A stretch of DNA of 64,000 bases from Selaginella tamariscina (taxonomy: Eukaryota; Streptophyta; Lycopodiopsida; Selaginellales; Selaginellaceae), in the NCBI GenBank assembly GCA_003024785.1, contig PUQB01000105.1, positions 62,001 through 126,000 on the forward strand, read 5' to 3'. Position numbers and translations under genes: made by a program. Of this stretch, positions 14,130 to 55,584 are shown piece after piece (within the stretch, counting starts at the first letter, position 1; each line of letters starts with the position of its first letter). The notes under the pieces were generated by a model. The model had not been told where the DNA came from. It was given only the letters and a program-made list of their open reading frames with translations, and searched no databases.

Positions 14130-14202
14130 GCTCCCGTGGCCTAATGGATAAGGCATTTGACTTCTAATCAAAGGATTGTGGGTTCGAGTCCCACCGGGAG
14201 TG
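14130..14202 (+). tRNA. tRNA-Arg (anticodon TCT)
   Basis: A 73-nt cloverleaf. The acceptor GCTCCCG pairs with CGGGAGT (one G-U), the anticodon arm is TTTGA-CTTCTAA-TCAAA with TCT, and the T arm is GTGGG-TTCGAGT-CCCAC, with discriminator G. No intron. The A box (TGGCCTAATGG) and B box (GGTTCGAGTCC) are both present, and a TTTT terminator follows at 14206-14209. It starts 68 nt after the psaE stop codon. Confidence 0.95.
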
Positions 14203-21540: not shown

Positions 21541-22213
21541 CACACGTGTGTGTGTGATTTTAATATATAAGACGATTTTTGCCTTGTAGTAATATTTGTG
21601 GCAGATGGAGCTTAGTCGAGAATAACTTTAGAGGCGAGTAGGAATATTATTATATTTTCTGTTCAAATTTTATGAGAGAAAACAAAGATTCATATGTTCT
21701 CACTGAAAAAAGGAAAAAAGAAAAAAATCATATCTTTTAACTTCATGTACATGTTAAATGTATATTAAGTATTATATACTTTAAATGGATTTATTAAGTA
21801 TACGTTAATACAGCTTATATACTATTAAGTATATTTAGATACTTTATATATGTGTATAGCTAAGTATTAAGCTATATTACCCTTTAAGCATATTAAGTAT
21901 ACAAATCTAAATGAGACATATACCTCATTATTTAATATTATTTTATATATATATATATATTATAAATTTGTTTTATATAATAAATATTTGTAGGATAATA
22001 TAGAAATATACGTAAGCATTCTATTACATTTATTCATGTTTATTAAACCCTAAACCCTTTCATTCATGTTGCCAAGTGTCACGAAGGGATTGTGGTTTTT
22101 AAAGTCAAAAGTGCCGTATAAAATTGACTTTACGTGTTCTAGTCATAAAAACGTGGTTGTCTCTTACAGTTGAACGACGGGCATCATTTCAGAATTGTAA
22201 TCCAGATGTTAAG
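21541..22213. other. AT-rich upstream region of LecRK-1
   Basis: (CA)n/(TG)n at 21531-21557, then AT-rich DNA with repeated AAGTATATT/TTAAGTATA words (about 21740-21900). Conserved in the second unit (43150-43817), where a (TC)n(TA)n microsatellite has been added at 43550-43606. No extra gene seen. Confidence 0.45.
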
Positions 22214-24093
22214 ATGGAGATAGTAGCAATTCTTTTCTGCTTTGCACTCTTGTACACTGGCGAGGCACAAGCTGAATTGTCTATTTCAGGCATATCATTA
22301 TCCGAGAAGGACATGTTTTTCCAAGGTGCACACTACCAAGGGAACACAATCGTAATGAGTCAGGCAAGTAACAGTAACTCAAGTCAGGCATTTTATATTA
22401 GAAATGTTGCCACAAACAACATCCCATTCTCATTTAACACAAGCTTTGTGTTTGATATGGAATTTAACACGCGTTTCATGGCCTTTGCCTTGGTTGGAAC
22501 AAGCTATAACTTCCCAAGCTGTGATGCAAATGGATCTTCAATTGCACCAGACTTGTACTCGTGTGACGCCTTCTTCATCGCCTTCCGCTGGGCCGACCAT
22601 GTCTCTAATAACCTCGAGGTGCGTCTGGGTTTCCTCAGCAAGAATATCATACTTGCAAACTCAACTCTCACTATGACGAGTAGCAACATCACACTCAAGG
22701 CTTGGATTGAATATCGAAATGGGATACGAGTCTGGGCTGCACCCAATGGCAGCTCTCGCCCTGTTTCTCCACTAGCTCAACATAATGTCTCATTACAAGG
22801 CCCATACTTCTTTCCGGGTTTCTCAGGTAGTTGTGATGTTAACACTAGCTGTACCCAGAGAATCTACTCTTGGTCCTTTGTAACTCTTGTGAGTCACTCG
22901 AAGAGGACGAAGCGGGCATGGATTGTGGGGTTCGTCGTAGCTGTGTCTATCTTGCTACTTGGGGGATTGTTCTACATGACAAAACGGATAAAGAAGCAAC
23001 GGAGGAAACACAACGTGTGGAGGAAACAAGCATTAGTAGCATCGAATGCCTTAATCAACTATTCATACAGAGATTTGAAGTACATAACCAAGAACTTCAA
23101 GGAAGTGATCGGCAAAGGGGGCAGTTGTATTGTGTATAAGGGATGGTTAGAGGTAAGCTTTAGCTTTGGGTTCTCCATGTGTGAACAGCTAAGCTTGTGT
23201 TGTAGATGAATCAAGAGGAGGTCGCTGTTAAGGAGTTGAACGAAAATGCTGCAGCGGAGAATCAGTTTCTTGAGGAGCTTAACATAATCAGCAGGGTGAG
23301 GCACCACTGCCTTGTCTCGCTAAGAGGCTGGTGTCAGGAGAACACCAAGTTGTTCCTTATCTATGAAATGATGTCTAATGGAAGTTTGGACAAACACCTC
23401 TTCTCAGCAGGATCGAGTGACGTTCTGAGTTGGAAGCAGAGGATGGAGATTATTAAATCTGTTGCAGAGGGGCTCGCTTATTTGCATGGAGGGTTAGAGA
23501 GGAGGATTGTTCATCGAGATATAAAGGCTGCAAATGTACTACTGGACGAGAAGATGAATACCAAGCTTGGTGATTTCGGTCTAGCAAGATCAATGCTCAA
23601 CACCGTTGGTGATCAAACTATGACTAAGGCTGGGACACTGGGTTACATCTCTCCGGAGCTGGCTTACACTGGCAGGGCAACTGAGAAATCAGATGTCTAT
23701 AGCTTTGGTGTTTTAGTTCTTGAGATTATCGCTGGGAGAAAGTGTTTGGAAGACCGGTTTGCTGAAGTTGACGATGATAAGGTTGTTCTTGTGAATTGGG
23801 TATGGAAAATGTACCAAGCTGATCAACTTGCTAGTACTGTTGATCCAAGATGCGTAGATGTAGACATCGACGAAGCTGTGAGAGAGATACGGTTAGGGCT
23901 GTTGTGCTGCTCAGTCGATTCTGGGGAGCGTCCGACCATGAAAGTCTGCTGCCAAATACTAAGTGGAGGCTTTGAAGTTCCACCACTTCCAGCGAACCAA
24001 AAGCCGGCTGCACAAATGTTTGGGATACTCAAACTGGCCGAGTCAACCGGCTCTTCTGCATCTATAATTTCTACATTCTCGTCTTTAATCTAA
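22214..24093 (+). CDS. L-type lectin-domain receptor kinase, copy 1 (LecRK-1)
   Basis: Two exons, 22214-23152 and 23206-24093, split by a 53-bp phase-0 intron; 608 residues. Signal peptide 1-20 ([20 protein letters not shown]). The ectodomain (about 21-250) has legume-lectin features: [43 protein letters not shown] and a closing IYSWSF, with many N-x-S/T sites. One membrane helix ([20 protein letters not shown], about 258-277) and a basic stop-transfer follow. The Ser/Thr kinase (about 300-580) is complete: [12 protein letters not shown] loop, VAVKEL lysine, [33 protein letters not shown]. Predicted plasma-membrane receptor kinase; the ligand is unknown. The upstream ATG at 22124 is less likely because it would bury the signal peptide. 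Confidence 0.93.
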
Positions 24094-25074
24094 CTAGTCA
24101 CTATAACCATGTGTGTCCACATCCACATAACCACTCTATAGGGACTAAGGCTGTCATCCATGCTGCTGAGTGTTGTGAATGATTGACAGGTGTTACTTGA
24201 GTGCAGCCGTTGTTGTCATCACAACTACTAAGGAAACCTGAAAAGAAATACAAACATCTAAGGAAGCATTTTTCTTTCAGTACTTGGAGAGTTGTAAAAC
24301 CAGTTATAATGAATATTGTAATGCATATAATTCTGTTTCTTAATAATTAATAATTTTAATTATTTAATTAATATTTTTTAATATTAAAGAAATATTCTTT
24401 AGAATATATGTTTAAAGAAAAAATATTCTTTAGAATGTATGTTTAGAATTTTAATAATCAATACTTAAGTATTAATTAGTAATTTATTTTATATTTTCAT
24501 TTTCATACATCATTCCCATTTTAATTATAGCAGTCATAATTTAATATTAATAATTAAATAAAAAAGTTATTAAATTAAATTATTAAATTAATAATGATAG
24601 TAACCATTGACTCTAATTATAATTTATAATTAAATTAAATTATATATCTATCTATCTATACCGATATACCATAGCTCTTGGACTTTTCTCCCAATCGCTT
24701 CGTAACACTTGAAAAACACAACTTTAACATGTTGAGTCAAGCTCAGAGTTCATAGTGAAAGCATCCATTTTCTTTGTTGTGCATATGGAGTTGCATTGCG
24801 ACAAACAGTTTCAAAATGCTATAAACATCGCATGCAATCGCAATCCACAAGAACCTCGTATGTTTCCAGACAACTCAGGTTTTGAGTCGCATAAGATGTC
24901 CTAATGTCTCCATGTCATCCAGGAGATAAACAAAAACTGGTGGTACATGAAACACTCAAGTTCGAGACACCGTGGGAGGAGTGGAACATGAAGATAGACA
25001 TTTGCAAGAACCTGTTCGTTGTGTTTGAAATATTCTATACAAATAGACTAAAGAGTCCTATCAGTCCAACTGTT
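24094..25074. other. AT-rich 3' spacer of LecRK-1
   Basis: Non-coding, dominated by TTAATTAATAATT words, repeated almost unchanged at about 46020-46919. This side lacks the two MITE insertions present in unit 2. No gene seen. Confidence 0.45.
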
Positions 25075-25906
25075 TGTTAAAGTTGGAATGTCACGAGTCT
25101 AACAAGGAGATTATATATAAATAAAAAGGAGTAATTACTGTAGAGAGACAATAGCAAATAGATATGTTTATTTTGTTGTTTAAGCTTAACATGGTATTGA
25201 AGCAGGACCTCCACCGTCAGTCTTCCTTAACCTTGGAAGTGTTTGATGGTAAAGATTTTCAGTCGTGAAATACTAAAATGTAATTCTACTTCATAAAAAA
25301 GAATCTCTAAAGCGTGATTGAAACGGACTCAAGCCAAAGGACAATGCCTTGGAAAAAGGAGTGGACACGAAGAATAGCAAGGCATTAGGGAACCTAGGAC
25401 AAGGCATTGAAGTTACTTTGACATTGGCAAAACAGCAAAGGAAAACTGTGACACGGTGATTGATCCATGGTACAACCAGCAGAGTGAGATTGCTAGAACT
25501 CAAGCTCATGCTAAACAAATGCAAAGAAAGTAAGACATAATCTGTGAGTGATTTTGCTAGTGTTCTTTTGAACATCGCCAAGCAGATCAACACATTTCAG
25601 TTGAGGGAATTCGACAATGACAAGATGATCATAGTTTTCTTGGAGGGACTTAACGGGCTAATGCAACTCACAGGGTTGCATCATTTAAGTTCCAGTAACA
25701 CTTTTACTTAAATAGTAGCCTATCTGGAAGTAGTAAAATACGCCGTAGTAAAAAAAAACACTACAAATTAATACTTAAATTAGATTAATAATAAAGTTAT
25801 AAAATTAATCTAATTTAATTATGTTTTTACTATGGCATATTTCAAGTCCGGGTAAGCAAGGTCGAATGTGAAAGATTGGCACTCTTCCTGACGATCTGTC
25901 ACAATG
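25075..25906 (+). mobile_element. Copia-3 remnant, unit 1, left part (fossil)
   Basis: A 117-bp LTR (25075-25191, TGTTAAAG...CTTAACA) is followed by a primer site (TGGTATTGAAGC, 25192) and a decayed Gag region beginning LEVFDGKDFQ. The element is broken. The DNA transposon at 25907-34977 is inserted into it, and it continues at 34987. A second copy lies at 46920-55698. Confidence 0.75.
25737..25842. mobile_element. MITE-3, shared by both units
   Basis: About 106 bp with inverted ends AATACGCCGTAGTAAAAA and AATATGCCATAGTAAAAA and an AT-rich interior. Present at the same place in unit 2 (47581-47675), so it is older than the duplication. It lies within the Copia-3 remnant. Ends resemble the MITEs at 45742 and 45905. 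I could not define a target duplication. Confidence 0.55.
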
Positions 25907-26022
25907 GGGTTTGACATTTCCTCTTGCGCAGTTTGCCGAGCGTACGGATTTCCGTCATACCGGAATATTCCATTCCGTACAGAATATTCGTTTTTGCATA
26001 AAGAATATTCCGGTGCGGCGGG
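25907..26022 (+). repeat. Left terminal/subterminal inverted repeat of the transposon
   Basis: Starts GGGTTTGACATTTCC. It carries GAATATTC palindromes at 25963, 25982 and 26003. The block GAATATTCCGGTGCGGCGG (26003-26021) is inverted at 34755-34774 with one mismatch. The outer 35 bp match the right end only in blocks (GGG, TC--GCGCAG, CGAGC). Confidence 0.75.
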
Positions 26023-26209
26023 CGGGCAATTGTGGCGGCACGGTAATGGTGTCAAGTTTCACAAATTTGGGGGTTAATCTGACATACATATATATATTTT
26101 TATATTTATATTTTTATTTTTTAAAAAATTTATATTTATAACTATAATTATATTTTTATATAAATACCGCATCAAACTAAAAAAAATTTACAATATAAAC
26201 ATAACTCAA

Positions 26210-29200
26210 TCATGAAGACTCATTTCCACCATCCAGTGCCTCGTCGTTAATGAATGCATTATTACGGTGTCGTGAATGTTTTTCTAAAATTTGTCTGTCA
26301 TAAACTTCGAACTCTTCAACCATTTTCTTTGCCATCTGATTAGCGTAGTCTGGCAAGACAATACTGAAAACATGTTAAAGTTTAAAACCAAAGAAATGAC
26401 AAAACAAATCTCACTCATCATCTGATGACTCGTCTGATCTCTCTTCTGCTGACTCATCTGATGACTCATCGTTGTGCTCCACGGACTTCTTTGTAACAAC
26501 ATCCTCGTCGTTTCGAGAAGGCGGATCCTGGTCTCCATCGTTGTCGCTAGCCAAAGGCAAATCCTGTGCTTCTGTTTCCATGGCCCTCTTCCACTCATCA
26601 AAAGGAGTAATCATGGAAACAACTTGATCATCCCCACCACCTTCAACTGTTGTAACACCTGGAACGACCTTCCTAAAGACATCTCTGGCTACTAAAACTA
26701 GATCCTTGTTGATGTCGATTCCATAATCATGTCTCCCTGTGTGAAAAGCTGCAAGAATACTAGCACCGATTCCCACTGTTAGATCCACGACAGTTCCACC
26801 AGGCTTTGTGAGCTTCTCCACTAGCATCGCAAACAACTTGGGAGATTTCGGGCCAATTGAAATCCTGAAAGTTGCAATGTTAAAAAATGAGAAATAACAA
26901 ACAACATTGTACCATGGGAGTTGGAAATCTTCTGGCTCGTCAAGAAGAAGAGTGTAGCGAGTGTCCAGGATCTTCCTTGTTCTTGGCAACCTTAGAGTAG
27001 GGGGAACCAAAAATACACATGGCAATGATGCTTTCCTGAAAAAATAACATTAAAAAATGACATTCTCAAAAAGAAGAATTACCTTTCTAGAGAAACGGTA
27101 TCCCCATGACTTTGTGTGCACATAACTCATCTGCAGAAACTTTAGCTTGCAAGTTTCTGCAGTGTTCTTCAAAGCTGGAACATCATCCGGTAGCACAAAC
27201 ACACCACATGGCCAGCTCTGTCTAATATCCCGAAAGCAAGGTTCACCAAGTTCTTCAGCAAAGCATCCGAGAACTTCGTGTATTGATCCACCATCCCGCC
27301 TGCCTCAGCAACGCATCCGGTAGGCGGGTCGATGACAACGAGATCAACAGCTCCCTGGATGCATTTTGGTGGAGGCTTCGCACCAAACACATGAATAGTC
27401 CAACTTGACTTGTGACTCACGATCCAATCCTCAAGCTCCTTCAATCCGGGAAAAGGCCTTCCGGCTTTGAAGTACTGGACTGCAAGGTTCTCTGAATCTG
27501 CATGAATGATTTCCCAGCTTCCATTTCCCTTCTCAGGCATCACCATCCTCAACATATCATCTTCTTCCAATCCAGCCGAGATGAAGGATGGGGCTGAAGA
27601 AGAAGCTGTCCCTTGCTGACCTTGCTCGCCGATCTAGCATACCTGATATCCATCTTCACATGGAGCTTCCTTGCAGCACTGTCGTTCTTCCATAATAGCT
27701 CTCGCCGATCATCCTTGTGTATCTTATAGCTGGCCATCTCCCATTCGGGACAGTCACCAGGAAGGAAATCCAGCCAGAAAGGACAGTGTTCCACTTCGTA
27801 ATCACTGATATCACGTAACAACCGGCTCCACATGCTAGAATCCTTGGTAACATCCATCCACTCTTTGAAATCTTCAGGGAGTGCATCGTTTTTCCATTTT
27901 AAAAACCTGTAAAAATAGATAAAAATCTGTAAAGAAACAAAAAAAAAAACTTGCCTGAATGCCATTCTTTTTGCAGATTTTTCCAGCTCAAATAGTCGAG
28001 AGGTGGAATTGTCGCACCGAACTCCTTGTTCTCGAGCATGTTCTGGTACATATCCAACTTAATTTCATTGTGCATCTTCGTATACCATCATGAACTCCTC
28101 TACATGCTCGAACCAAGCTCTTTAGCTGCCTCCCGACCTGGCACGATAAAACGAATAAAAATGAAAAATATAAATATTAAATTACCTGGAACCAGTAAGT
28201 AAAGATGTGCAAAAACTTGATGAAGTCCTTGTCAGGCCAGCCGGTGACACCTTCCTTCTTGTCTTTCTCCGTCATGTTCACCAGCTTCTCAAGAACGCCA
28301 CGTTCTTGAATGTGCACAAGCTTTCCAAGGATATCAACCTTGACGTTGGAAGGAAGCTGGGACTTCGCGAGCATTTGAAGCTTCTCCAGAGTTATTTGCT
28401 TCGTTGATGGTTTGATAGTGATATCTGTGATCGCCTTGAACCAATCTTCGCCGACCGCCGGATCAGCAATGGTGAGGAATTTGTTCATCCGAACTGTGAA
28501 TGTCTTGTAAACGCTGGAGAGGATCTAGATTCTGTCTGGTTTGGTTTTCTGTTCGCAAGTTTTGTAGCGATTTGTCGCTTCAGTTGATTCTGCAAAAGAA
28601 ACCGAAAATCAAAAAACAATCAAAAGAAGAAGAAAAGATTACCTCCCAAAAAATCTTCACCAATGTCGTCTTTGGATACTCGTACCAAACGTCTTCTTTT
28701 CTGTTCGATCTCCACACTTCCACAGCTTTTCTATCTTCCTCCGGCATCCCGCGAAGAACATGATCGGTAGAAAGATCTGCAGACTTCACAACAATTCCGT
28801 AAGAACTGCAAGGTGTGAATGATTGTTGTAGGAACCACACGAGCAGTTGCTCTGCAAAACAAAACAACATTTATTTAGTATTTAAATAATGAAACAAACA
28901 AGTCACTTACTCATTCAACCGATTGCAAGCAGCGATTAGTCTCTCTTCCTGCCTGTGGATGCTATGAGTGTTGCACGTACACGCAAAGTCCATTTCAAAC
29001 CTGGCTCTTCAGCAAGCAAAGTGTTCAAAGCAACCCGACGATGATTCCCATCCCACACCAGAAACTTTGCATCTTTCAAAATCGATACCACGCAGAAAAT
29101 GCTGGCTTATGCAAATCCGCTTCAAACTCTCTATCGACCTGTGCTTCTGACTCATTCCAACTTCGGCGTTCGTCTGCACTCAGCTGTGGTCCGAAAGATA

Positions 29201-29821
29201 AGGTGAACACTGACGTCTCCTGGTAAAATCCTTCAGCTCTAATCCATCCAACAAGGTCTTTCACGCCGTCCTTAGTGACATTCCTCAAACGTTGGTGTGG
29301 GAGCAACCTGTGAACCGGGATACGCGGAGGCTCACCAAGCTCAACTGGAACGTAGTGGTCTCGTCCTTGTAGCGATGTGTCAATATCGTGTCATACCGAA
29401 TAACAAGATCCCGAAGAAGCTTGGATGGAGCCTCAAGTGTCAGCCGCTCCGGAATTGCATATGATTCGGCAACATCCTCAGGAGCATCCAGTTTCCTCTT
29501 CTTATTGAACTTTACTACCAAGATCAATGTCCGGTACTTCCTCTGCATTACCGTGTTCTGCAGAGCTTCCTGCGATCTCCCTATTTCTAGGCATCCATTC
29601 ACTCACCACAGCATGTTCATCAATGACTTGCGAACTATCCACAGGTTCATTGTTCGTCGGCATCATCTTCTCGTGTCAGTTGTTGCTTGGCGCCTCGGCC
29701 TCCTTTCTTGCCACGAGGTTTTGGAGCCATATCTGCAAGAGCTTCTTGGACGATATGTTCCTGAAGTGTCAAAGTCTTGTATTTATCTCGCAGTCTCTTA
29801 CTCTGCCTTTGCCTCATTCTG
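26210..29821 (-). CDS. ParB-like domain plus beta-class DNA amino-methyltransferase, transposon-borne, frame-disrupted
   Basis: Multi-exon minus-strand gene; the first recognised exon opens after an acceptor (TTGTAATTGCAG) with MRQRQSKRLRDKY at 29821. The N-terminal part (about 29500-28930) looks ParB/Srx-like: IPVHRLLPHQRL, VKDLVGWIRAEGF, then FLVWDGNHRRVALNTLL with a GNHRR core. The middle (about 28850-27600) is Lys/Glu-rich and unassigned. The C-terminal part shows methyltransferase motif IV as VDLVVIDPPTG (about 27330), VFVLPDD, then KSPKLFAMLVEKLTKPGG (motif X) and VVDLTVGIGAS...YGIDIN (motif I, about 26790-26720): the IV-TRD-X-I order of beta-class m4C/m6A enzymes. An acidic Ser/Asp tail and a last exon ending at 26210 follow. 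Clear introns: 28642-28590, 27080-27033, 26915-26868 and one near 26402-26341. Frame changes fall near 29640, 29400, 29070, 28480, 27560, 27200 and 26955. Target base unknown. Confidence 0.7.
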
Positions 29822-31349
29822 CAATTACAACAACTGATAAGAGTGTGTGTGTGAGTTTTTAATTTATGGACACACATTTACTATATATGTATACCTATCA
29901 ATATATATAGACACGCACACACACACATATTTGTTACATGTTGTTTGTGTGTGTGCTCACTATATAATGTTCCTTGTGTGTGTATGTGTGTAATGTTGCT
30001 TGTGTGTGTGTGTGCAATGTTGTTTGTGTTTTGTGATGTGTCTGTGAGAGAGAGAGAGGTATATTCATATCTCTTCACATGTATATACAGACAAAAAGTC
30101 ATCTCATATATAAGTCTTAATTCATATACTTATACATATATATTATAATATATATATATAAGATTTTATTAAAGATACTAAGACTATATATATTATATAA
30201 ACAAGTCTTTTTAATATGTATTATATATATATATAAACACACACACACACATGTATACAATCTAATGTTTGAATAGTGTAAAATGTTGCTTGTGTGTGTA
30301 TGTGTATGATGTTGCTTGTTTGTGTATGTGTAATGTTGCTTGTTTGTGTATAGCTTGTGTGTGTATAAATGTTATTTGTGTGTGTGTGAACACACACACC
30401 ACACACACACACACACACAAATTCCTGCAAATTGGGCAGGAATTTCTGCCGCCCGGATGGTGCGGCGGCCGCACCACCTGGGCGGCAGGATTTTTCCTGC
30501 CCAATTCGGCAGGTGTTGTGTGTTGTGTGTGTGTGTGGCAGGAATTTGTGTGTGTTCGTGTGCTGAAACAGCCGCCGGAGAGGTGTGTGTGTACATGTTT
30601 GTGAATATAGAGAAATCCTAGTGAATTCGCACATACATACACAGAAATTGCTATTAAATTTGCACACACATATATAAGATTTTACCTGTAGCCATGTCGC
30701 CGTGACGTTCACACTAGCCTCCTATCGCCACAAATGGAGAATAAGAGCGGCCACAAAAAGAAGAACAAAAGTGCCTTCTCATTAATGGAGAATGGAGAAG
30801 AAGAGTGGCCGACCCTAAACCTTTAATTAAAACCTAACCCTTAACCCTTTGACCCTTAACCATAAAATTGTGTTTAATACAATACTTGCAATAAATAACG
30901 TACTATACAAAATGATACAAATATAAACACATATTTAAGTAAAGATTTGTATGTTAAAAAAATATATTATTATATAATTAAATAAATATTCGTGTAAAAA
31001 TATGTATTTATAATATCTACAATAGTACATATTTATATAAAATACTGGTTCAAATGGTTATATAATTATAGTAAATAAAGTAATAGAATATAAACAAGTC
31101 ATAAATAAATATGGCAGATGAATGTAGATTAGACACGCATTTATTTAAATGATAATAAAGATTGCTCTATTTCTACGTGAAGTGCTATCCTATATTAACA
31201 TCTAAGATCTATATGTTTCCTTGAATTAAATATCCGCCCACGTTGAGTCATGATTGTGAATTCTTGGAACGGTAATATCTGATATTTACCAAAAGGTGAT
31301 TAGGTAATGCTGTTGTTTTTCTATCACGTTTGTGGTAACTGTTTGCACA
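29822..31349. other. Divergent intergenic region of the transposon
   Basis: Contains (TG)n/(CA)n runs, TATATA tracts (30140-30235), the palindrome at 30424-30513 and an AT-rich half (30880-31240). It lies between two genes transcribed away from each other and so should hold both promoters; no exact start site can be named. A 5' exon of the methyltransferase gene may lie here. Confidence 0.5.
30424..30513. repeat. Large GC-rich palindrome in the divergent promoter region
   Basis: Arms of about 42-45 nt centred on 30467 (GGTGCGGC-G-GCCGCACC). Outward the arms keep GCCGCCC/GGGCGGC, CTGCC/GGCAG and AATTGGGCAGG/CCTGCCCAATT with a few mismatches and a one- to two-base indel. It is extended on the left by (CA)n (about 30390-30419) and on the right by (TG)n (about 30515-30537), which also pair. 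Strong potential hairpin or cruciform. Confidence 0.9.
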
Positions 31350-34300
31350 ATGGCCAGGATTGTTTACGGTAATTTGGATCATGATGTTCCTGTGATAGAT
31401 GGTGTTGGAATCGTTCTTACTAATCAGATCAGAAAGTTCTTTGGCATTTTTGATTGGCAAAGTGTTCGCCTTTTTAAACTTCTGCATGGGCAATCTGCTT
31501 TAGAGATCGAAATAAATGAGGACCAAGATGCTGGGGGAAGGATAATCCAGGATATATTTTGTTACCGGATGGAGGACCACTGTTTAAGCTTGTCGTTGCT
31601 TCTGACTCTGAATACTCAACGTTGAAGGACCTTTTCACTTCTAATACCTGCAAAAAGGGAAGAATTCTTATCGAGGGCTCCATGATCATTCATACAAATG
31701 AATTGCCTATTGCGTATGATGGGGATGTCATTTTTGAGCTCCCTCCTTCCGAGTACAAATACAAAGGAATGAATCGGAAAGAGGATGGACATACCTGGAC
31801 TGCAGGAATAACCAGCAACTGGAATTTCCAAGCGAGGGTGTCCAGGAGCAGATGTGTTGGGAGCCTTTGTTGTATCAACCCGGACTGCCCTGCTTCTAAG
31901 GCAGGATTTCCAAACTGCACTAAATGGAAAGGATGTATTGTTTCCCCACCTTCAATCGACAAACTGGCAAAAGGATTGACATGTTTTTTCTGTAAAGAAA
32001 ATCCACTGTGCCTTGAAGTTTGTCCTGCTGTGGTTTCTACGTTTTCCCAAACGACATAACCAAGACTAGATTGTTTATCCACCAGGGAAAACATTCACAT
32101 CCAGTGGGTGATGGTGTTTCTGCATCGAGCAAAGAAGAACTGCATCTGGCGGTCCAGAATGCAACAGAAAGAACTCCCAGAGCTAGTCCAAGAGTCATCA
32201 AAATGGCAGCATGTAAAGATGCTATCTTTGGTTTCCTATTAGATAATTCTGAACCTGGAAGTTGGGATAAGCTGATGGATCACTTGCAGCCGTTATCAAA
32301 TAATCGAAGGTACAATTAGAGTTTTACTTTGTGTTGAGCATTCTTTGATAATACCTTTGATGCAAAGTTCGTCAATGGGTAGCGTCCGCAAAGAGAACTG
32401 CTGCTGAAATGCCAGAGAATATTGATGGATTGTTAGAGCTGAAACGAAGGTTGTCTATCCCATTCATCCATGTCATTCACTATCCTGGGATGAATTTCCA
32501 TGGTTCAGACGACCAAGCATTAGTTTTTAAAATGACGGTTTCAGGGCCAGGTTCTGGAATCGATTACGTAAGGATGTGCCAACCTCCTCTTGGCCGTTTG
32601 CAGAAGAGTTGGGTTCTACTTGATCACACACACCGTGTTGTTGATAAGTGGATCACTCTGGCTTTGCACGTTTACGACCCAAAGTAAGATGTTATCTTTT
32701 TGTGGTTTGCTTAACTCTTTAATTATTTTATTTGTGGTTTGCTTAACTCTTTGATTATTTTATAGTGTGCGTCGACTATCCACCATTGCTTATGGTGACA
32801 TGAAGAGACAAACGGCTGGAGCTGTAGAGAAGTTTTTTCGTGCTATGTTGGATGTTTGTTCAGAGAAGGGAATATACAATGTAGTTCGCTGGGTTTATGT
32901 CTGATGAAGCAGGAGCGATCTGGCAAGCAATCAGAAGTGTGTTCTTTAATGGCCAAGAAATTCCTGGACGTGAACGGAACTGTATCTTTCACTATGAACA
33001 AGCCATACAACGTGTGACAAGGAAGTGGGTCCCTCTTGAACATCAACAACAACATCTTCAACTTTTGAGATCCTGGCCAACAGCCACATCAACAACTGAT
33101 CGTGAAGAAATTGAAAATAATCTTTTCCGCTTTTGGAATGAAAATGTGCAGGATGTTGGAGTTATGCGGACGTGGTTTTCATGGTGGGAAAGACAGAAGA
33201 ATCATATTTCAAATGTTGTTCTTGAAAGCATGCCGGAGAATGCTGCAAGGGTTGTGCCCATGACAAACCAGTCAGAGTTGTTCACGGAAGATGGAGGAGG
33301 GCTAGAGATTCAAAATATATTTCATTGTACCAAGCTACAATCCACGACCTGACTGAATCAGTGCGACAATGTGCTCTTGTGAAGGCTTTTAGAGATGGAA
33401 GGTATAGTGGTTCCGGGCGACTTCAGAGGAGCTCTCGGCAAGGTTCAAGAGAAGAATGTCAAATGCTAACTCAACAACAGCTACAGCAAAGGTTATCATC
33501 GACTTAGTTGAAGATGTTGCTCCATCAAGCATGCAGGATATTGCTTTTGTGGCTGCCACGAATGTTGAACATCGCACTGTCCAAAGAAATATGGGGTCAG
33601 AGGCTGAACGATCCCACCGACCGGACATCTTCTATAGCGAACAGGTTATTCCAACACAGTGTAGACGGAAGCGACGGTTGGATTTTCATGTTGCAGAAGA
33701 ACATGAAGAATATGTTCTGGTTGAAGAACAAGATGTTACACCTGGACAATGGGCGATTAGAAGATGCGGTGAAAGAAGTTCTGTGAAATGTCTAGCAGGC
33801 TTTCCCTCTTCAGGAGGTCAGTGGAGTGCTTGTGACAAAAAGATCAGTCCTAGTGGTAATCGAGTGGCTGCTCCTTGTTTTTTCGGAAGGATCAGATACA
33901 ACGACAAAGAAACTGGTGAAGAATGCTTTGCTCACAAATGATGTATTTTTGTCCAACAAACATGCTCTGCAACAGACATCCAAGACCAACTATTGTTTCT
34001 CCACCAGCTTCTACCTCGGTTTGGAAAGTTCAAGTGGGCACGAAGCTGATAGCGGTGGAGATCAATGATCTGGCAAGATCGGTTTATGCTAGCTGGGCTT
34101 CCTTCAGCTCATGCAAGAGTGCCAGGTTTTTCAACACCTCATGTTCCTTCAGTTCCTGTTGGAGTCACTGGATTTTCAACGCCCCCTGCACAATTTCGTG
34201 GACCTCCTGTTCCTACAAGTGGTCGTGCAACAAGAACACCTTCAGGGATGTCTAAGAAACACAGGTAAGTTTTGAAGCATGTTTGACGTTGGAAGCATAT

Positions 34301-34588
34301 GTCGCAGAAGTTGACGTGGTTGATCCTCCAACATGCATTCGCTTCAGAGTATGTGACAACGACCATACATCTGCTTGGGTTGTCATTTGTAGCGCACCAT
34401 CTTGTTCATGCTCGGAGTTCTGCAATGGTCGTCAGTGGGTGCCTTGTAAACATATGTATTTTGTTTACAAGCGTGTATTGGGAGCTGATCCTCGAGTTGT
34501 CAAGCATTTGCAACGCCGTACACTTGCACCCCGTGAACTGAGTTCTTTATTGATGCTACCAAGGAACCTCCATCCTCCATCTATTTAG
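31350..34588 (+). CDS. Mutator-like DDE transposase with Cys/His finger and SWIM domain, frame-disrupted
   Basis: Exons about 31350-32309, 32368-32683, 32766-34264 and 34308-34588, with GT-AG introns of 44-82 bp. The N-terminus (MARIVYGNLDHDVPV...) is unassigned. A Cys-rich block (CCINPDCPASKAGFPNC...CFFCKENPLC, about 31860-32020) followed by GKHSHP suggests a WRKY/GCM1- or FLYWCH-like DNA-binding finger. The catalytic core reads LLDHTH (about 32620, first Asp), AYGDMKRQTAGAVEKFF, MSDEAGAIWQAI (32899, second Asp), FHYEQAIQR, and MTNQSE (about 33275, likely Glu). A Pro-rich linker precedes the SWIM finger CSCSEFCNGRQWVPCKH (about 34400-34450). It should cut and join the element's ends in the nucleus. 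Frame changes occur near 31555, 32040, 32380, 32890, 33340, 33940 and 34060, so this copy is unlikely to be active. Confidence 0.82.
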
Positions 34589-34751
34589 TGTGTTTGGTTT
34601 ATTTTCAAACAGCTTCGGATTTATATTTGTTATTTCAAACTTATAATTTTCAATATAAATTTTAATGGTAATTTTATGCTTAGCATATTTTTAAATAATT
34701 TAACATATATTTCCTTCAAATATAACAGAAATATACTACCATATTTTGTAT

Positions 34752-34977
34752 GCGGCCGCCGCACCAGAATATTCTAGAATATTCTTAAAGATTTTGAAAG
34801 GTTCAATTGTGTGTACGGGTTTGACATTTCCTCGAGCGCAGTTTGCGTACGACAAATTTCCGTACAGAATATTTCGAGAATATCTAAACGGAAATACTAC
34901 GGAACAACAGAAATATTCCAAAATATTCCAAATCTAGGTCAAGCTCGTTGACCTGCGCTCGAATTTCGCCGTGCCCC
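34752..34977 (-). repeat. Right terminal/subterminal inverted repeat of the transposon
   Basis: Ends ...CGAATTTCGCCGTGCCCC against the target duplication. Contains many GAATATTC/AATATTCC words (34768-34788, 34868-34880, 34911-34931) and the inverted CCGCCGCACCAGAATATTC block. It also holds a direct-orientation copy of the left tip (GGGTTTGACATTTCCTC at about 34819-34835), so a terminal segment is duplicated internally. Confidence 0.7.
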
Positions 34978-34986
34978 GTCACAATG

Positions 34987-35434
34987 TAGGACCAACAAGT
35001 GAGAAAAGTTTAAAAAGAAAAAGAAAAGTGATCTTTGTAACATTTGCAAGAAATTAAGACACTGGACAAGAGCCAGTGAAAGAAGACACGTCAGTCTCTA
35101 TCGACTCAACGCCTATGTAGTGCAACCCTAGAAAGCTCTCTTTGCAAGGACAAAGAAAGCAGTGGACCTCTAGATGAGGCACATGAGACTTGGCCACACA
35201 AACCTACAGGATGCTAAACTAAAGAACTAACAATAAGAGCGATGGTAAAAGGTTTGCATCTCCTCGTTATGTGCAATGAGGTTTCGCAAGCCGTGTGCAC
35301 TCAGTAAACACCACTGGCTACCTTTTCCACGTATAGCCATTAACCGTGCCAAGGAAACTCTAGCACTATTTCATTTTGATGTTTCTGGAAACATGTCCAC
35401 ACTTTCCAGAGACAAGAAAGCTATACTTTGCCAT
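34987..35434 (+). mobile_element. Copia-3 remnant, unit 1, right part (fossil)
   Basis: Continuation of the element at 25075-25906 beyond the transposon: Gag knuckle region (CNICKK-like), then a pre-integrase stretch (MRLGHTNLQD..., NRAKETLALFHFDVSGNM). It is shorter than the copy in unit 2 and broken. It ends where PG exon 4 begins (CCCAATACTGACGGG at 35435). Confidence 0.75.
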
Positions 35435-36305
35435 CCCAATACTGACGGGATTGATCCAGGTAATGAAATAACTAATTATTATTGCACACACACACACACT
35501 GTGTGTGTGTAAAATGTGTGTAAAACGATGTAGATTCAAGTTTCAACGTGTGTATCCAAGACTGCTACCATAAGCAACGGTGACGATGCCGTGGCGGTAA
35601 AGAGCGGTTGGGATGAATACGGGCTCGTCCTAGTCACGATATCTTCATACACAACGTAATAGGGAGTGGGTCGCATGGAATATCCTTGGGCAGTGAAATG
35701 TCTGGTGGCATCTACAGCCTCCATGTCGACAACGTGGCAATATCTGAAGCCGTTCAGGCTATCCACGTCAAGACCTCCGCCGGTCGTGGCGCTTACATTG
35801 TCAATGCCACGTTTGCAAACTTTCAACTTTTCAACACAGGTGTGCGCGTCGTTTTCTGCACATACTACACAGATCCAATCCCCCCTCTCTCTCCCCACGC
35901 ACGCACACACACACACACACACAGAGTTTAATTAGTAATTCACTGCTTGCTATAGGTGTGGCAATTTCATTTACTGGCATATACGGTGACCACCCGGACA
36001 ATGACTACGATCCAAATGCATTTGCGACAATCGAGAATATCTCCATTCAGAACATGGTGGGTTCCAAAGTAAATCGAGCAGGCGATTTTCGCGGTGTTCC
36101 ACAGTCCCCATTCCGAAACATATGTTTGAGAAATATAAGTCTGGAGATTGAAGTTAAACCTCAAAGGGGCTGGAACTGCAGCTACATACAAGGCTATGCA
36201 GAACATGTGTCTCCAAAGCCATGTTCATCAATCGAGATTGAAATGGGTTCAAGTTGTTTCTATCCTGCTCAAGCTTCATCTGCAAGGAATTATAAACCTG
36301 TTTAA
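35435..36305 (+). pseudogene. Polygalacturonase 3' fragment (PG copy 2)
   Basis: Begins inside exon 4 (NTDGIDPG) directly after Copia-3 sequence and has no exons 1-3 or signal peptide. Exon 5 (about 35534-35839) carries an extra base in GACTGCTACCATAAGC and lacks bases in GGGCTCGTCC relative to PG-1. Exon 6 (35956-36305) is open and nearly identical to PG-1, ending ARNYKPV. Non-functional as an enzyme. Confidence 0.88.
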
Positions 36306-43606: not shown

Positions 43607-43817
43607 AATTTGTTTTATATAATAAATATTTGTAGGATAATATAGAAATATACGTAAGCATTCTATTACATTTATTCATGTTTATTAAACCTTAAACCCT
43701 TTCATTCATGTTGCCAAGTGTCACGAAGGGATTGAGTGATAAAAACGTGGTTGTCTCTTACAGTGTCACTAAGTTGAATGATGAGCATCACTTGGGAATC
43801 GTAATCCAGATGTTAAG

Positions 43818-45694
43818 ATGGAGATAGTAGCAATTCTTTTCTGCTTTGCACTCTTGTCCACGGGCGAGGCACAAGCTGAATTTTCCATTCCAGGCATATC
43901 GCCCGAGAAGGACATGTTGCTCCAAGATGCACTATACCAAGAGAATACAATCATAATGACTCAGGCAAGTAACAGTAGCACAAGTCAGGCATTTTATATT
44001 AGAAATGTTGCCACAAACAACATCCCATTCTCATTTAACACAAGCTTTGTGTTTGATATGGAATTTAACACGAGTTTCATGGCCTTTGCCTTGGTTGGAA
44101 CAAGCTATAACTTCCCAGGCTGTGATGCAAATAGATCTTCAATTGCACCAGACTTGTACTCGTGTGACATCTTCTTTATCGCCTTCGGCTGGGCCGACCA
44201 TGTCTCTAATAACCTCGAGGTGAGTCTGGGTTTCGTCATGAAGAATAACACACTTGCAAACTCAACTCTCACTATGACGAGTAGCAACATCACACTCAAG
44301 GCTTGGATTGAATATCGAAATGGGATACGAGTCTGGGCTGCACCCAATGGCAGCTCTCGCCCTGTTTCTCCACTAGCTCAACATAATGTCTCATTACAAG
44401 GCCCATACTTCTTTCCGGGTTTCTTAGGTGGTTGTGATGTTAACACTAGCTGTACCCAGAGAATCTACTCTTGGTCCTTTGTAACTCTTGTGAGTCACTC
44501 GAAGAGGACGAAGCGGGCATGGATTGTGGGGTTAGTCGTAGCTGTGTCTATCTTGCTACTTGGGGGATTGTTCTACATGACAAAACGGATAAAGAAGCAA
44601 CGGAGGAAACACAACGTGTGGAGGAAACAAGCATTAGTAGCATCGAATGCCTTAATCAACTATTCATACAGAGATTTGAAGTACATAACCAAGAACTTCA
44701 AGGAAGTGATCGGCAAAGGGGGCAGTTGTATTGTGTATAAGGGATGGTTAGAGGTAAGCTTTAGCTTTGGGTTCTCCATGTGTGAACAGCTAAGCTTGTG
44801 TTGTAGATGAATCAAGAGGAGGTCGCTGTTAAGGAGTTGAACGAAAATGCTGCAGCAGAGAATCAGTTTCTTGAGGAGCTTAACATAATCAGCAGGGTGA
44901 GGCACCACTGCCTTGTCTCGCTAAGAGGCTGGTGTCAGGAGAACACCAAGTTGTTCCTTATCTATGAAATGATGTCTAATGGAAGTTTGGACAAACACCT
45001 CTTCTCAGCAGGATCGAGTGACGTTCTGAGTTGGAAGCAGAGGATGGAGATTATTAAATCTGTTGCAGAGGGGCTCGCTTATTTGCATGGAGGGTTAGAG
45101 AGGAGGATTGTTCATCGAGATATAAAGGCTGCAAATGTACTACTGGACGAGAAGATGAATACCAAGCTTGGTGATTTCGGTCTAGCGAGATCAATGCTCA
45201 ACACCGTTGGTGATCAAACTATGACTAAGGCTGGGACACTGGGTTACATCTCTCCGGAGCTGGCTTACACTGGCAGGGCAACTGAGAAATCAGATGTCTA
45301 TAGCTTTGGTGTTTTAGTTCTTGAGATTATCGCTGGGAGAAAGTGTTTGGAACACCGGTTTGCTGAAGTTGACGATGATAAGGTTGTTCTTGTGAATTGG
45401 GTATGGAAAATGTACCAAGCTGATCAACTTGCTAGCACTATTGATCCAAGATGCGTAGATGTAGACATCGACGAAGCTGTGAGAGAGATACGGTTAGGGC
45501 TGTTGTGCTGCTCAGTCGATTCTGGGGAGCGTCCGACCATGAAAGTCTGCTGCCAAATACTAAGTGGAGACTTTGAAGTTCCACCACTTCCAGCGAGCCA
45601 AAAGCCGGCTGCACAAGTGTTTGGGATACTCAAACTGGCCGAGTCAACCGGCTCTTCTGCATCTATAATTTCTACATTCTCGTCTTTAAGCTAA
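43818..45694 (+). CDS. L-type lectin-domain receptor kinase, copy 2 (LecRK-2)
   Basis: Paralogue of 22214-24093 with the same plan: exons 43818-44753 and 44807-45694, 53-bp intron, 607 residues. Signal peptide, lectin-like ectodomain, membrane helix and complete kinase ([39 protein letters not shown]) are intact. Changes against copy 1 cluster in the first 40 mature residues (about a dozen substitutions and a one-residue deletion) and at SLGFVMKNNTL versus [11 protein letters not shown], while the membrane and kinase parts are almost identical (for example E/H, V/I, G/D, N/S, M/V, I/S late in the kinase half). Both copies appear functional on sequence grounds. Confidence 0.93.
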
Positions 45695-45741
45695 CTAGTC
45701 ATTGTAACCATGTGTGTCCACATCCACATAACCACTCTATA

Positions 45742-45858
45742 GCAGTGATATATGCGTAGTAATAAAAACTGTTACAGATTAATAATTAAATTAAATTAAT
45801 AATTAAATTAATAATTAAATATTTCTGTAACATTTTTGGACTACATATTTAATCATTG
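45742..45858. mobile_element. MITE-1, hAT-like
   Basis: Ends CAGTGATATATGCGTAG and (reverse complement) CAATGATTAAATATGTAG, with inner TGTTACAG on both sides. Flanked by CTCTATA (45735-45741 and 45859-45865; 7 of 8 if 8 bp are counted). Absent from unit 1, which has the plain site ACTCTATAGGGAC near 24133. The CAGTG tip and 8-bp target suggest a hAT derivative. AT-rich interior, no coding. Confidence 0.8.
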
Positions 45859-45904
45859 CTCTATAAGGACTAAGGCTGTCATCCATGCTGCTGAGTGTTG
45901 TGAA

Positions 45905-46002
45905 CAGTGATATATGCCATAGTAAAAAAATGTTACGGATTAATAATTAAATTAATAATTAAACATTTTCGTAGCATTTTTTAACTATGGATTTAATCAC
46001 TT
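45905..46002. mobile_element. MITE-2, same family as MITE-1
   Basis: About 98 bp, CAGTGATATATGCCATAGT at one end and its approximate inverse at the other, flanked by TTGTGAA (45898-45904 and 46004-46010). The empty site is in unit 1 near 24173-24183. Lies 46 bp from MITE-1. Confidence 0.8.
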
Positions 46003-46019
46003 ATTGTGAACGATTGACA

Positions 46020-46919
46020 GGTGTTACTTGAGTGCAGCCGTTGTTGTCATCACAATTACTAAGGAAACCTGAAAAGAAATACAAACATCTCAGGAAGCAT
46101 TTTTTCTTTCAGTACTTAGAGAGTTGTAAAATCAGTTATAATGAATATTGTAATTAAAATGGGAATGCATATAATTCTGTTTCTTAATAATTAATAATTT
46201 TAATTATTTAATTAATATTTTTTAATATTAAAGAAATATTCTTTAGAATATATGTTTAAAGAAAAAATATTCTTTAGAATGTATGTTTAGAATTTTAATA
46301 ATTAATACTTAAGTATTAATTAGTAATTTATTTTATATTTTCATTTTCATACATCATTCCCATTTTAATTATAGCAGTCATAATTTAAATATTAATAATT
46401 AAATAAAAAAGTTATTAAATTAAATTATTAAATTAATAATGATAGTAACCATTGACTCTAATTATAATTTATAATTAAATTAAATTATATATCTATCTAT
46501 CTATACCGATATACCATAGCTCTTGGACTTTTCTCCCAATCGCTTCGTAACACTTGAAAAACACAACTTTAACATGTTGAGTCAAGCTCAGAGTTCATAG
46601 TGAAAGCATCCATTTTCTTTGTTGTGCATATGGAGTTGCATTGCGACAAACAGTTTCAAAATGCTATAAACATCGCATGCAATCGCAGTCCACAAGAACC
46701 TCGTATGTTTCCAGACAACTCAGGTTTTGAGTCGCATAAGATGTCCTAATGTCTCCATGTCATCCAGGAGATAAACAAAAACTGGTGGTACATGAAACAC
46801 TCAAGTTCGAGACACCGTGGGAGGAGTGGAACATGAAGATAGACATTTGCAAGAACCTGTTCGTTGTGTTTGAAATATTCTATACAAATAGACTAAAGAG
46901 TCCTATCAGTCCAACTGTT
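46020..46919. other. AT-rich 3' spacer of LecRK-2
   Basis: Near-identical to 24180-25074. Non-coding TTAATTAATAATT-rich DNA. Confidence 0.45.
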
Positions 46920-47580
46920 TGTTAAAGTTGGAATGTCACGAGTCTAACAAGGAGATTATATATAAATAAAAAGGAGTAATTACTGTAGAGAGACAATAGC
47001 AAATAGATATGTTTATTTTTGTTGTTTAAGCTTAACATGGTATTGAAGCAGGACCTCCACCGTCAGTCTTCCTTAACCTTGGAAGTGTTTGATGGTAAAG
47101 ATTTTCAGTCGTGAAATACTAAAATGTAATTCTACTTCATAAAAAAGAATCTCTAAAGCGTGATTGAAACGGACTCAAGCCAAAGGACAATGCCTTGGAA
47201 AAAGGAGTGGACACGAAGAATAGCAAGGCATTAGGGAACCTAGGACAAGGCATTGAAGTTACTTTGACATTGGCAAAACAGCAAAGGAAAACTGTGACAC
47301 GGTGATTGATCCATGGTACAACATCAGAGTGAGATTGCTAGAACTCAAGCTCATGCTAAACAAATGCAAAGAAAGTAAGACATAATCTGTGAGTGATTTT
47401 GCTAGTGTTCTTTTGAACATCGCCAAGCAGATCAACACATTTCAGTTGAGGGAATTCGACAATGACAAGATGATCATAGTTTTCTTGGAGGGACTTAACG
47501 GGCTAATGCAACTCACAGGGTTGCATCATTTAAGTTCCAGTAACACTTTTACTTAAATAGTAGCCTATCTGGAAGTAGTA

Positions 47581-47675
47581 AAATACGCCGTAGTAAAAAA
47601 AAACACTACAAATTAATAAATTAATTAGATTATAAAATTAATCTAATTTAATTATGTTTTTTACTATGGCATATT
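47581..47675. mobile_element. MITE-3, unit 2 copy
   Basis: Counterpart of 25737-25842 with the same inverted ends and a slightly shorter interior. Confidence 0.55.
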
Positions 47676-47917
47676 TCAAGTCCGGTAAGCAAGCTCGAAT
47701 GTGAAAGATTGGCACTCTTCCTGACGATCTGTCACAATGTGGGACAAACTAGGACCTGCAAATGGTTAAGGCAATACCAACAAGTGAGAAAAGTTTAAAA
47801 AGAAAAAGAAGAGTGATCTTTGTAACATTTGCAAGAAATCAAGACACTCAACAAGATACTGCATGGACGAAGAGGTCAAGAAAGAAATGGAGACTTGAAA
47901 AGTTAAGGCAAAGAAAG

Positions 47918-55246: not shown

Positions 55247-55584
55247 TGTTAAAACTAAGCTGAATATACACACAACCCGGGCAGGTAGCTCAGTGGTAGA
55301 GCACCTCACACCGGTGTGAGAGGTCCCAGGTTCAATCCCCGGCATGTCCAGATCCACTTGTCCAAAAAGCTTGTTCCTTCTAAACTGTTCCACTCTTTTG
55401 GAGAGACACGTTGCATGCTAATGGGGGGGCTTTGAACATTGCATGCTAATGGGGGGAGGCTTTGAACAGGCTTTGAACATCGGAGAGACACGTTGCATGC
55501 TAATGGGGGAGGCTTTGAACACCGCAGGTTATATAAGAAACCGTCTTCCTTCATCGAGTTTAAAGCATCCGGTTTTTTCTAACA
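55247..55584 (+). repeat. Second LTR-like segment, with tRNA-like core and tandem repeats
   Basis: Preceded by the purine tract TTAGGGGGGAG; runs TGTTAAAACTAAGC to GGTTTTTTCTAACA. Contains the tRNA-like sequence at 55279-55350 and about four repeats of GTTGCATGCTAATGGGGG-GGCTTTGAACA (about 55405-55520). Confidence 0.6.
55279..55350 (+). other. tRNA-like sequence, probably not a functional tRNA
   Basis: 72 nt with a good A box (TAGCTCAGTGG), B box (GGTTCAATCC) and a four-base-pair D stem. The acceptor arm has one mismatch and one G-T pair, the T stem one mismatch, and the anticodon stem CTCAC/GTGAG closes a six-base loop instead of seven. It resembles a tRNA-derived (SINE-like or captured) sequence within an LTR-like segment. 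Confidence 0.55.

What the first reader, a model, noticed from the sequence alone, without database searches (positions are those of the whole stretch)
25907..34977. DNA transposon carrying a ParB-like/DNA-methyltransferase gene divergent from its transposase
One precisely bounded 9.07 kb insertion holds two spliced, divergent genes: a Mutator-type transposase and a protein with a ParB-like GNHRR region followed by beta-class methyltransferase motifs. ParB-methylase pairings are familiar from phage and bacterial modification genes; I know of no described plant Mutator family with one. If real, the element may methylate its own DNA or ends, to mark them, regulate transposition or evade host silencing.
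Basis: partly seen in the sequence, partly recalled or inferred. Interest (0 to 1): 0.92.

Follow-up and report, generated by a model that had tools for sequence, protein, structure and literature searches.

The report
Plant transposon carrying a DNA-methyltransferase gene
A family of near-identical jumping genes, in what looks like a plant genome, carries beside its jumping enzyme a bacterial-style DNA-methylation protein of a kind lately described in algal transposons, which may let it mark its own DNA.

Summary
Window 25907-34977 is one DNA transposon with a perfect 9-bp target duplication; a paralogous site in the window lacks it. Two spliced genes diverge inside it. It belongs to a family: the methyltransferase-like gene and the transposase each have 40 scored places (capped lists), and the gene lies beside the transposase in 35 of 40 transposase places. 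Ten of 19 copies whose ends were read have perfect 9-bp duplications. The window copy is frame-shifted, but another copy encodes an unbroken 1,042-aa protein in seven exons. It passes Pfam's cut-off for N6_N4_Mtase and has beta-class motif order. Caveats: the ParB label rests on a motif and sub-threshold DndB matches; Mutator type rests on duplication length and motifs, not a profile; the catalytic motif is DPPT in all five copies read, without the usual aromatic residue. The kind is already known: a 2025 Ectocarpus paper describes a 1,104-aa ParB-like/DNA-methyltransferase gene opposite the transposase of a Sola element, cites green and red algal cases, and proposes self-modification. This is a further member, apparently in a land plant and another transposon superfamily. 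Methylation is untested.

The parts
25907..34977 (.). whole element, 9,071 bp in this copy
   Evidence: 9-bp target duplication, paralogous site without the element, other copies with the same ends
25898..25906 (+). left target-site duplication GTCACAATG
34978..34986 (+). right target-site duplication GTCACAATG
25907..26075 (+). left end, begins GGGTTTGACATTTCC
   Evidence: its first bases were found by a loose pattern in 17 of 19 copies whose ends were read
34757..34977 (+). right end, finishes GCCGTGCCCC; holds a direct copy of the left 30 bp at 34817-34846
26411..29817 (-). methyltransferase-like gene, frame-shifted here; seven exons and 1,042 aa in the copy on contig C608
28939..29366 (-). 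ParB/DndB-like region
   Evidence: weak DndB matches; conserved with fern protein P0001
29035..29058 (-). VWDGNHRR motif
   Evidence: in 5 of 5 copies read, 4 distinct sequences
27313..27339 (-). motif IV-like VVIDPPTGC (DPPT, no aromatic residue)
   Evidence: in 5 of 5 copies read, 4 distinct sequences
26759..26785 (-). motif I-like DLTVGIGAS (SAM-binding); after motif IV, so beta-class order
   Evidence: PF01555 34.2 bits in the unbroken copy
31350..34585 (+). transposase gene, frame-shifted here
   Evidence: 40 scored places in the genome
34403..34453 (+). CxC-x11-CxH, SWIM-like zinc-finger pattern
   Evidence: sequence; no Pfam SWIM match
47640..47860 (+). paralogous site without the element

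Best explanation
A recently active, Mutator-type DNA transposon family whose larger copies carry two divergent genes. SHOWN: the family, 9-bp target duplications, the standing pairing of the two genes, and, in an unbroken copy, a 1,042-aa protein with a beta-class amino-methyltransferase domain towards its C-terminal end. INFERRED: the plus-strand gene is the transposase; the N-terminal DGNHRR region works like ParB/DndB proteins as a DNA-binding or targeting module; it brings the methyltransferase domain to the element's own DNA, where it writes or reads an amino-methyl mark (6mA or 4mC) that protects the element from host silencing or tunes transposition. This is the role already proposed for the ParB-like/methyltransferase partner genes of algal transposons, and comparable to VANC in VANDAL elements and TET/JBP in fungal transposons.
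For: Divergent pair at 1.3-1.5 kb spacing in 17 of 40 transposase places by list linkage. The gene's 5' part lies at the expected place in 18 of 20 further transposase places tested (the script's own tally was 16, two more overlap the gene by more than 500 bp). Right end at matching distance in 19 of 40 gene places. Perfect adjacent 9-bp duplications in 10 of 19 copies. Contigs C1 and C608 identical over 3,726 bp. The C608 copy gives an unbroken 1,042-aa frame with six short introns. PF01555 3.3e-8, 34.2 bits against a cut-off of 26.7. PHROG 67 DNA methyltransferase 2e-10 over residues 638-966. In the phage search with the methyltransferase piece, 21 of 25 listed records (98 in all, E 9e-3 to 0.5 among those listed) are annotated as methylase or methyltransferase. 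A fern protein shares the N-terminal half at 26% identity, pairwise E 8e-18. Published parallel: a 1,104-aa ParB-like/DNA-methyltransferase gene on the strand opposite the transposase of Sola1-1_Ec32 (PMC12477816, passages).
Against: DPPT replaces the usual [DNS]PP[YFW] in 5 of 5 copies read. No Pfam MULE, SWIM or ParB match; the PDB search with the ParB-like part found no ParB. Structure predictions failed (pLDDT 31.1 and 41.5). No transposase relative at E <= 1e-3. In the capped lists 15 of 40 gene places have neither a transposase nor a right end in place. No expression, methylation or binding data. The window copy is frame-shifted, and the C1 transposase first exon also loses frame.
Confidence: 0.55

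Rival explanations
1. The methyltransferase domain is catalytically dead and serves as a DNA- or SAM-binding scaffold; the protein is a sequence-specific binder that blocks silencing or represses the transposase, functionally like VANC.
For: DPPT without an aromatic residue in 5 of 5 copies read. In the bdelloid enzyme, changing SPPY to APPA (both Ser and Tyr) abolished activity (PMC8885841, passages). VANC in VANDAL elements induces loss of methylation and is bound to specific motifs (PMC5735166, abstract and section headings).
Against: Motif I is well kept and PF01555 is over cut-off. The domain order and size fit an enzyme.
Confidence: 0.25
2. The gene regulates transposition chemistry: methylation of the ends, or of hemimethylated DNA after replication, times excision, as Dam does for bacterial IS10 (recalled).
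For: Standing pairing with the transposase and recent activity.
Against: No site preference or methylation data. The ends are short and divergent.
Confidence: 0.1
3. The gene is a passenger once captured from a bacterium, phage or host and now hitch-hiking without a function for the element.
For: MULEs are known to capture genes (recalled). The nearest profiles and sequences are phage and bacterial.
Against: Open 1,042-aa frame kept. Paired with the transposase in 35 of 40 transposase places. Similar partner genes are reported in other transposons.
Confidence: 0.08

Closest known systems
ParB-like/DNA-methyltransferase accessory gene of Sola1-1_Ec32, Ectocarpus (PMC12477816, passages read)
   Same: Large protein (1,104 aa) with a ParB-like and an N4C/N6A DNA-methyltransferase domain, on the strand opposite the transposase; self-binding and self-modification proposed there
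   Different: Sola element of 21.5 kb in a brown alga; here a 9-kb element with 9-bp duplications (Mutator-type by inference) in an apparent land plant, DPPT motif. The two proteins were not compared.
[quoted passage not shown] 2011; Petroll et al.; neither read)
   Same: Described there as similar proteins in transposons
   Different: Superfamilies and sequences not seen by me
VANDAL MULEs with VANC anti-silencing protein (PMC5735166, abstract and outline)
   Same: DNA transposon with a second gene that counters silencing
   Different: VANC is a sequence-specific binding protein; here the partner carries an amino-methyltransferase domain. VANC homology was not tested.
TET/JBP-encoding DNA transposons of fungi, and SET genes in HarbingerS and Phytophthora MuDR (PMC12730594, passages read)
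   Same: DNA transposons that carry an epigenetic enzyme gene
   Different: Dioxygenase or histone methyltransferase instead of a DNA amino-methyltransferase
Bdelloid rotifer N4CMT (PMC8885841, passages read)
   Same: Bacterial-type amino-methyltransferase in a eukaryote, tied to transposon control
   Different: Host gene that silences transposons, SPPY motif, chromodomain
Phage DNA methyltransferases, PHROG 67
   Same: Closest profile to the methyltransferase half (2e-10)
   Different: Phage proteins; similarity covers residues 638-966 only

Membership tests
ParB-like/DNA-methyltransferase accessory genes of algal transposons | amino-methyltransferase domain in a ~1,100-aa protein, on the strand opposite the transposase | tested here: met
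   1,042 aa, PF01555 over cut-off, divergent from the transposase
ParB-like/DNA-methyltransferase accessory genes of algal transposons | ParB-like DNA-binding domain | tested here: inconclusive
   DGNHRR motif and sub-threshold DndB matches only
ParB-like/DNA-methyltransferase accessory genes of algal transposons | sequence homology to the algal proteins | not tested
   No algal sequence was compared; the protein search with the window version found only a fern protein among 7,992 scored candidates
Mutator-like elements (MULE) | 8-11 bp target-site duplication | tested here: met
   9 bp perfect and adjacent in 10 of 19 copies; 1 more 8 of 9; 3 with six bases; 3 none; 2 left end not found
Mutator-like elements (MULE) | MULE/DDE transposase profile | tested here: not met
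   No Pfam MULE match with the conceptual protein or the C1 exons; D, D, C..H and E motifs seen by eye only
Mutator-like elements (MULE) | SWIM zinc finger | tested here: inconclusive
   CxC-x11-CxH pattern present at 34403-34453, no Pfam SWIM match
Mutator-like elements (MULE) | terminal inverted repeats | tested here: inconclusive
   Ends GGG...CCCC; best inverted alignment of the outer 300 bp scored 58 against a shuffle maximum of 56; a 23-nt subterminal inverted repeat, 91% complementary, at 26002-26024 and 34753-34775
Beta-class DNA amino-methyltransferase | N6_N4_Mtase profile | tested here: met
   34.2 bits, cut-off 26.7, over profile positions 165-218 of 221
Beta-class DNA amino-methyltransferase | motif IV before motif I | tested here: met
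   VVIDPPTGC precedes DLTVG.GAS in 5 of 5 copies read; PHROG 67 match spans residues 638-966
Beta-class DNA amino-methyltransferase | catalytic [DNS]PP[YFW] | tested here: not met
   DPPT in 5 of 5 copies read, 4 distinct sequences
ParB/Srx superfamily | PF02195 match | tested here: not met
   0 matches in the whole genome, six frames without introns, none in Pfam scans
ParB/Srx superfamily | DndB-like DGQHR-type region | tested here: inconclusive
   PF14072 E 0.0012 and 0.0056, TIGR03233 E 0.0076, all under cut-off
ParB/Srx superfamily | ParB fold | tested here: inconclusive
   Models of pLDDT 31.1 and 41.5 are unusable
VANDAL/VANC | VANC homolog as second gene | not tested
   No VANC sequence was compared
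TET/JBP-positive transposons | TET/JBP dioxygenase gene | tested here: not met
   No such Pfam match at E <= 5 in the proteins scanned

The most novel reading that the evidence does not exclude
A ParB-like amino-methyltransferase module, known so far from algal transposons, has become a standing partner of a different kind of transposon in a land plant, and writes 6mA or 4mC on the element's own copies (or, with its DPPT site, a changed activity), letting it evade or edit plant silencing: a transposon-borne counterpart of phage self-modification.
Probability: 0.35. Interest if true: 0.87.

Novelty: new member of a known kind. Interest (0 to 1): 0.64.

Why it matters
Similar partner genes in brown, green and red algal transposons are already reported; finding one in an apparent land plant, with a transposase of another kind, would suggest that the module is mobile between transposon superfamilies or very old. 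Many near-identical copies make the proposed self-methylation directly testable with native long reads, and would give a natural source of 6mA or 4mC in plants. If the DPPT site is dead, it would be a methyltransferase turned into a transposon regulator.

Tried and rejected
One-off capture: rejected, since the gene accompanies the transposase in 35 of 40 transposase places. The other 5: contig C336 has the gene about 7.8 kb away; contig C158 has it in another orientation; contig C1154 was not tested; the stretch L059 matched only the spacer, so it does not decide; L063 matched nothing of the element.

PMC12477816 stood in the listing, and its passages describe the same layout in algal transposons. 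I lowered interest and novelty for this, and raised the confidence of the best explanation a little.

Pseudogene relic: rejected for the family. Frame breaks in the window copy go with an excess of small indels also seen in neighbouring repeated DNA (substitutions to gaps 10:13 and 13:13 in two stretches, but 53:3, 9:0 and 4:0 in three others) and in another copy (C452 against C1: 2 substitutions, 8 gaps). I take them mostly for assembly errors; this is inference.

Bacterial contamination: rejected (introns, copies on many contigs).

Led nowhere: structure predictions. The alignment-based protein search returned nothing, not even the known fern relative, so it is uninformative. No transposase homologs among 7,994 candidates. 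Viral contigs, no relative. PDB sequence searches: weak; 5 of 11 matches of the methyltransferase half are beta-type methyltransferases at E 0.087-0.82; nothing useful for the rest. Phage search with the ParB-like parts: 9 and 1 records, no ParB annotation. Left-end copy search did not complete. Seven 10-kb stretches, three of the window's own contig and four from elsewhere, held no DNA match to the element; one protein match at E 0.72. Paper searches: 137 papers, 25 listed; 0; 4; 95, 8 listed; 97, 8 listed; beyond PMC12477816 I saw no such gene in the listed titles and abstract starts.
Full report
THE ELEMENT. The window holds one insertion at 25907-34977, flanked on both sides by GTCACAATG. 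The window also contains a tandem segmental duplication: 22158-25909 matches 43764-47743 at 97-98% in two long blocks. The second copy of that segment has a single GTCACAATG and no element, with a short indel just after the site. It shows what the site looks like without the element.

THE FAMILY. The window lies in a 300.7-Mb assembly of 1,391 contigs. The minus-strand gene region has 40 scored places among 167 candidates, the window copy included; 37 of the 40 are full or nearly full length in one piece, most at 97-98% identity. The transposase region has 40 scored places among 156 candidates, most at 95-96%. The right end has 40 scored places among 179 candidates, 39 of them at 80-82%. All three lists are capped, so they are lower bounds. 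In 19 of 40 gene places a right end lies in the expected orientation, giving spans of 8.2-8.8 kb. In 17 of 40 transposase places the gene lies divergent, 1.3-1.5 kb away. Against this, 15 of 40 gene places have neither a listed transposase nor a listed right end in place; the lists are capped, so this does not show that they lack them. Of the 23 transposase places without a link I fetched the expected gene position for 20. The script counted 16 with the gene; two more (L058, L064) overlap the gene by more than 500 bp and were missed only by its cut-off, so 18 of 20 carry it. The pair is thus present in 35 of 40 transposase places.

THE ENDS. I examined both ends in 19 copies (17, plus the window and contig C1). 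Ten have perfect, adjacent 9-bp duplications (window, C1215, C1026, C975, C646, C1097, C536, C560, C882, C535); in C536 this counts two G's that could belong to the element's G run. C1124 matches at 8 of 9. C484, C1 and C452 share six adjacent bases. C608, C481 and C923 show none. In C604 and C930 the left end was not found. The ends begin GGGTTTGACATTTCC and finish GCCGTGCCCC; the inverted similarity between them is weak, with one better subterminal inverted repeat of 23 nt.

RECENT ACTIVITY AND FRAME BREAKS. Copies on contigs C1 and C608 are identical over the 3,726-bp gene region. C452 differs from C1 by 2 substitutions but 8 gaps, C336 by 20 substitutions and 16 gaps, and the window copy by 66 substitutions and 18 gaps. 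Nearby duplicated DNA in the window shows the same indel excess in two of five stretches. I infer that much of the frame-shifting in the window copy is assembly error in repeated DNA. The C1 copy has a 614-aa open last transposase frame, but its first exon loses frame, so a fully intact transposase was not demonstrated.

THE SECOND GENE. The C608 copy splices into seven exons with six introns of 47-59 bp (five GT-AG, one GC-AG) and gives an uninterrupted 1,042-aa protein. It matches Pfam N6_N4_Mtase at 34.2 bits, above the cut-off of 26.7, over the SAM-binding part. It matches PHROG 67 DNA methyltransferase at 2e-10 over residues 638-966. Motif IV (VVIDPPTGC) precedes motif I (DLTVG.GAS), the beta-class order, in 5 of 5 copies read, which are 4 distinct sequences. 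In 5 of 5 the catalytic motif is DPPT. Reported motifs are SPPY, DPPY, NPPY, DPPF and DPPW (PMC8885841, passages), so an aromatic residue is missing and activity is open. The fern protein P0001 (Adiantum nelumboides) is the only relative found, among 7,992 scored candidates. It shares EFEADL, VW.GNHR and TLEKL stretches with the N-terminal half; by eye it has DLPF in its C-terminal half, perhaps the counterpart of DPPT.

THE ParB QUESTION. The N-terminal half carries VWDGNHRR in 5 of 5 copies read. It gives only sub-threshold DndB matches and no PF02195 match. Two structure predictions failed for want of an alignment. By my own tests it is ParB/DndB-like, not proven; the published two-domain layout in an algal transposon speaks for it.

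THE TRANSPOSASE. No Pfam match to MULE or SWIM and no homolog at E <= 1e-3. Evidence for a Mutator type is the 9-bp duplication, a CxC-x11-CxH pattern, and motifs that I recognise from memory (LLDHTH, MSDEAG, CIFHYEQ, TNQSE). The assignment is provisional.

WHAT IS KNOWN. [quoted passage not shown] 2011 and Petroll et al. (neither read by me), and that they may bind and modify their own transposon. The present element fits that kind. What differs: an apparent land plant (small introns, fern relative, plant-like neighbouring genes recognised by eye), a 9-kb element with 9-bp duplications rather than a 21.5-kb Sola, and DPPT. Other transposons with epigenetic helpers are VANDAL with VANC (PMC5735166, abstract and outline), and SET and TET/JBP carriers (PMC12730594, passages). 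In five paper searches (listings only, capped) I saw no land-plant or Mutator-type case; the library lacks most subscription papers.

MECHANISM. Most likely the second protein binds the element's DNA through its N-terminal region and either writes an amino-methyl mark or acts as a non-catalytic binder, protecting the element from silencing or controlling transposition. The family, pairing and domain are shown; the rest is inferred.

Noticed in passing
22158-25909 and 43764-47743: Tandem segmental duplication at 97-98% with kinase-like reading frames (recognised by eye); the element sits at the edge of one copy only
   Followed up: partly
34817-34846: Direct copy of the element's left 30 bp (93% identical) inside its right end, a possible second transposase-binding site
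   Followed up: no
26002-26024 and 34753-34775: Subterminal inverted repeat of 23 nt, 91% complementary, inside the two ends
   Followed up: no
30441-30493: GC-rich near-palindrome between the two divergent genes, amid TG/CA and TA repeats; a possible shared regulatory region
   Followed up: no
24173-25909 and 35320-36295: Excess of 1-bp indels against paralogs (10:13 and 13:13 substitutions to gaps), pointing to unpolished repeated DNA in this assembly
   Followed up: yes
34757-34977: The other 39 scored right ends match at only 80-82% and most are some 23 bp shorter, so the window copy may belong to a separate subfamily
   Followed up: partly
14130-14202 and 55279-55350: tRNA matches (Rfam)
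   Followed up: no
whole assembly: Assembly size and contig number recall Selaginella tamariscina; from memory, not confirmed by any search (one search did not settle it)
   Followed up: no
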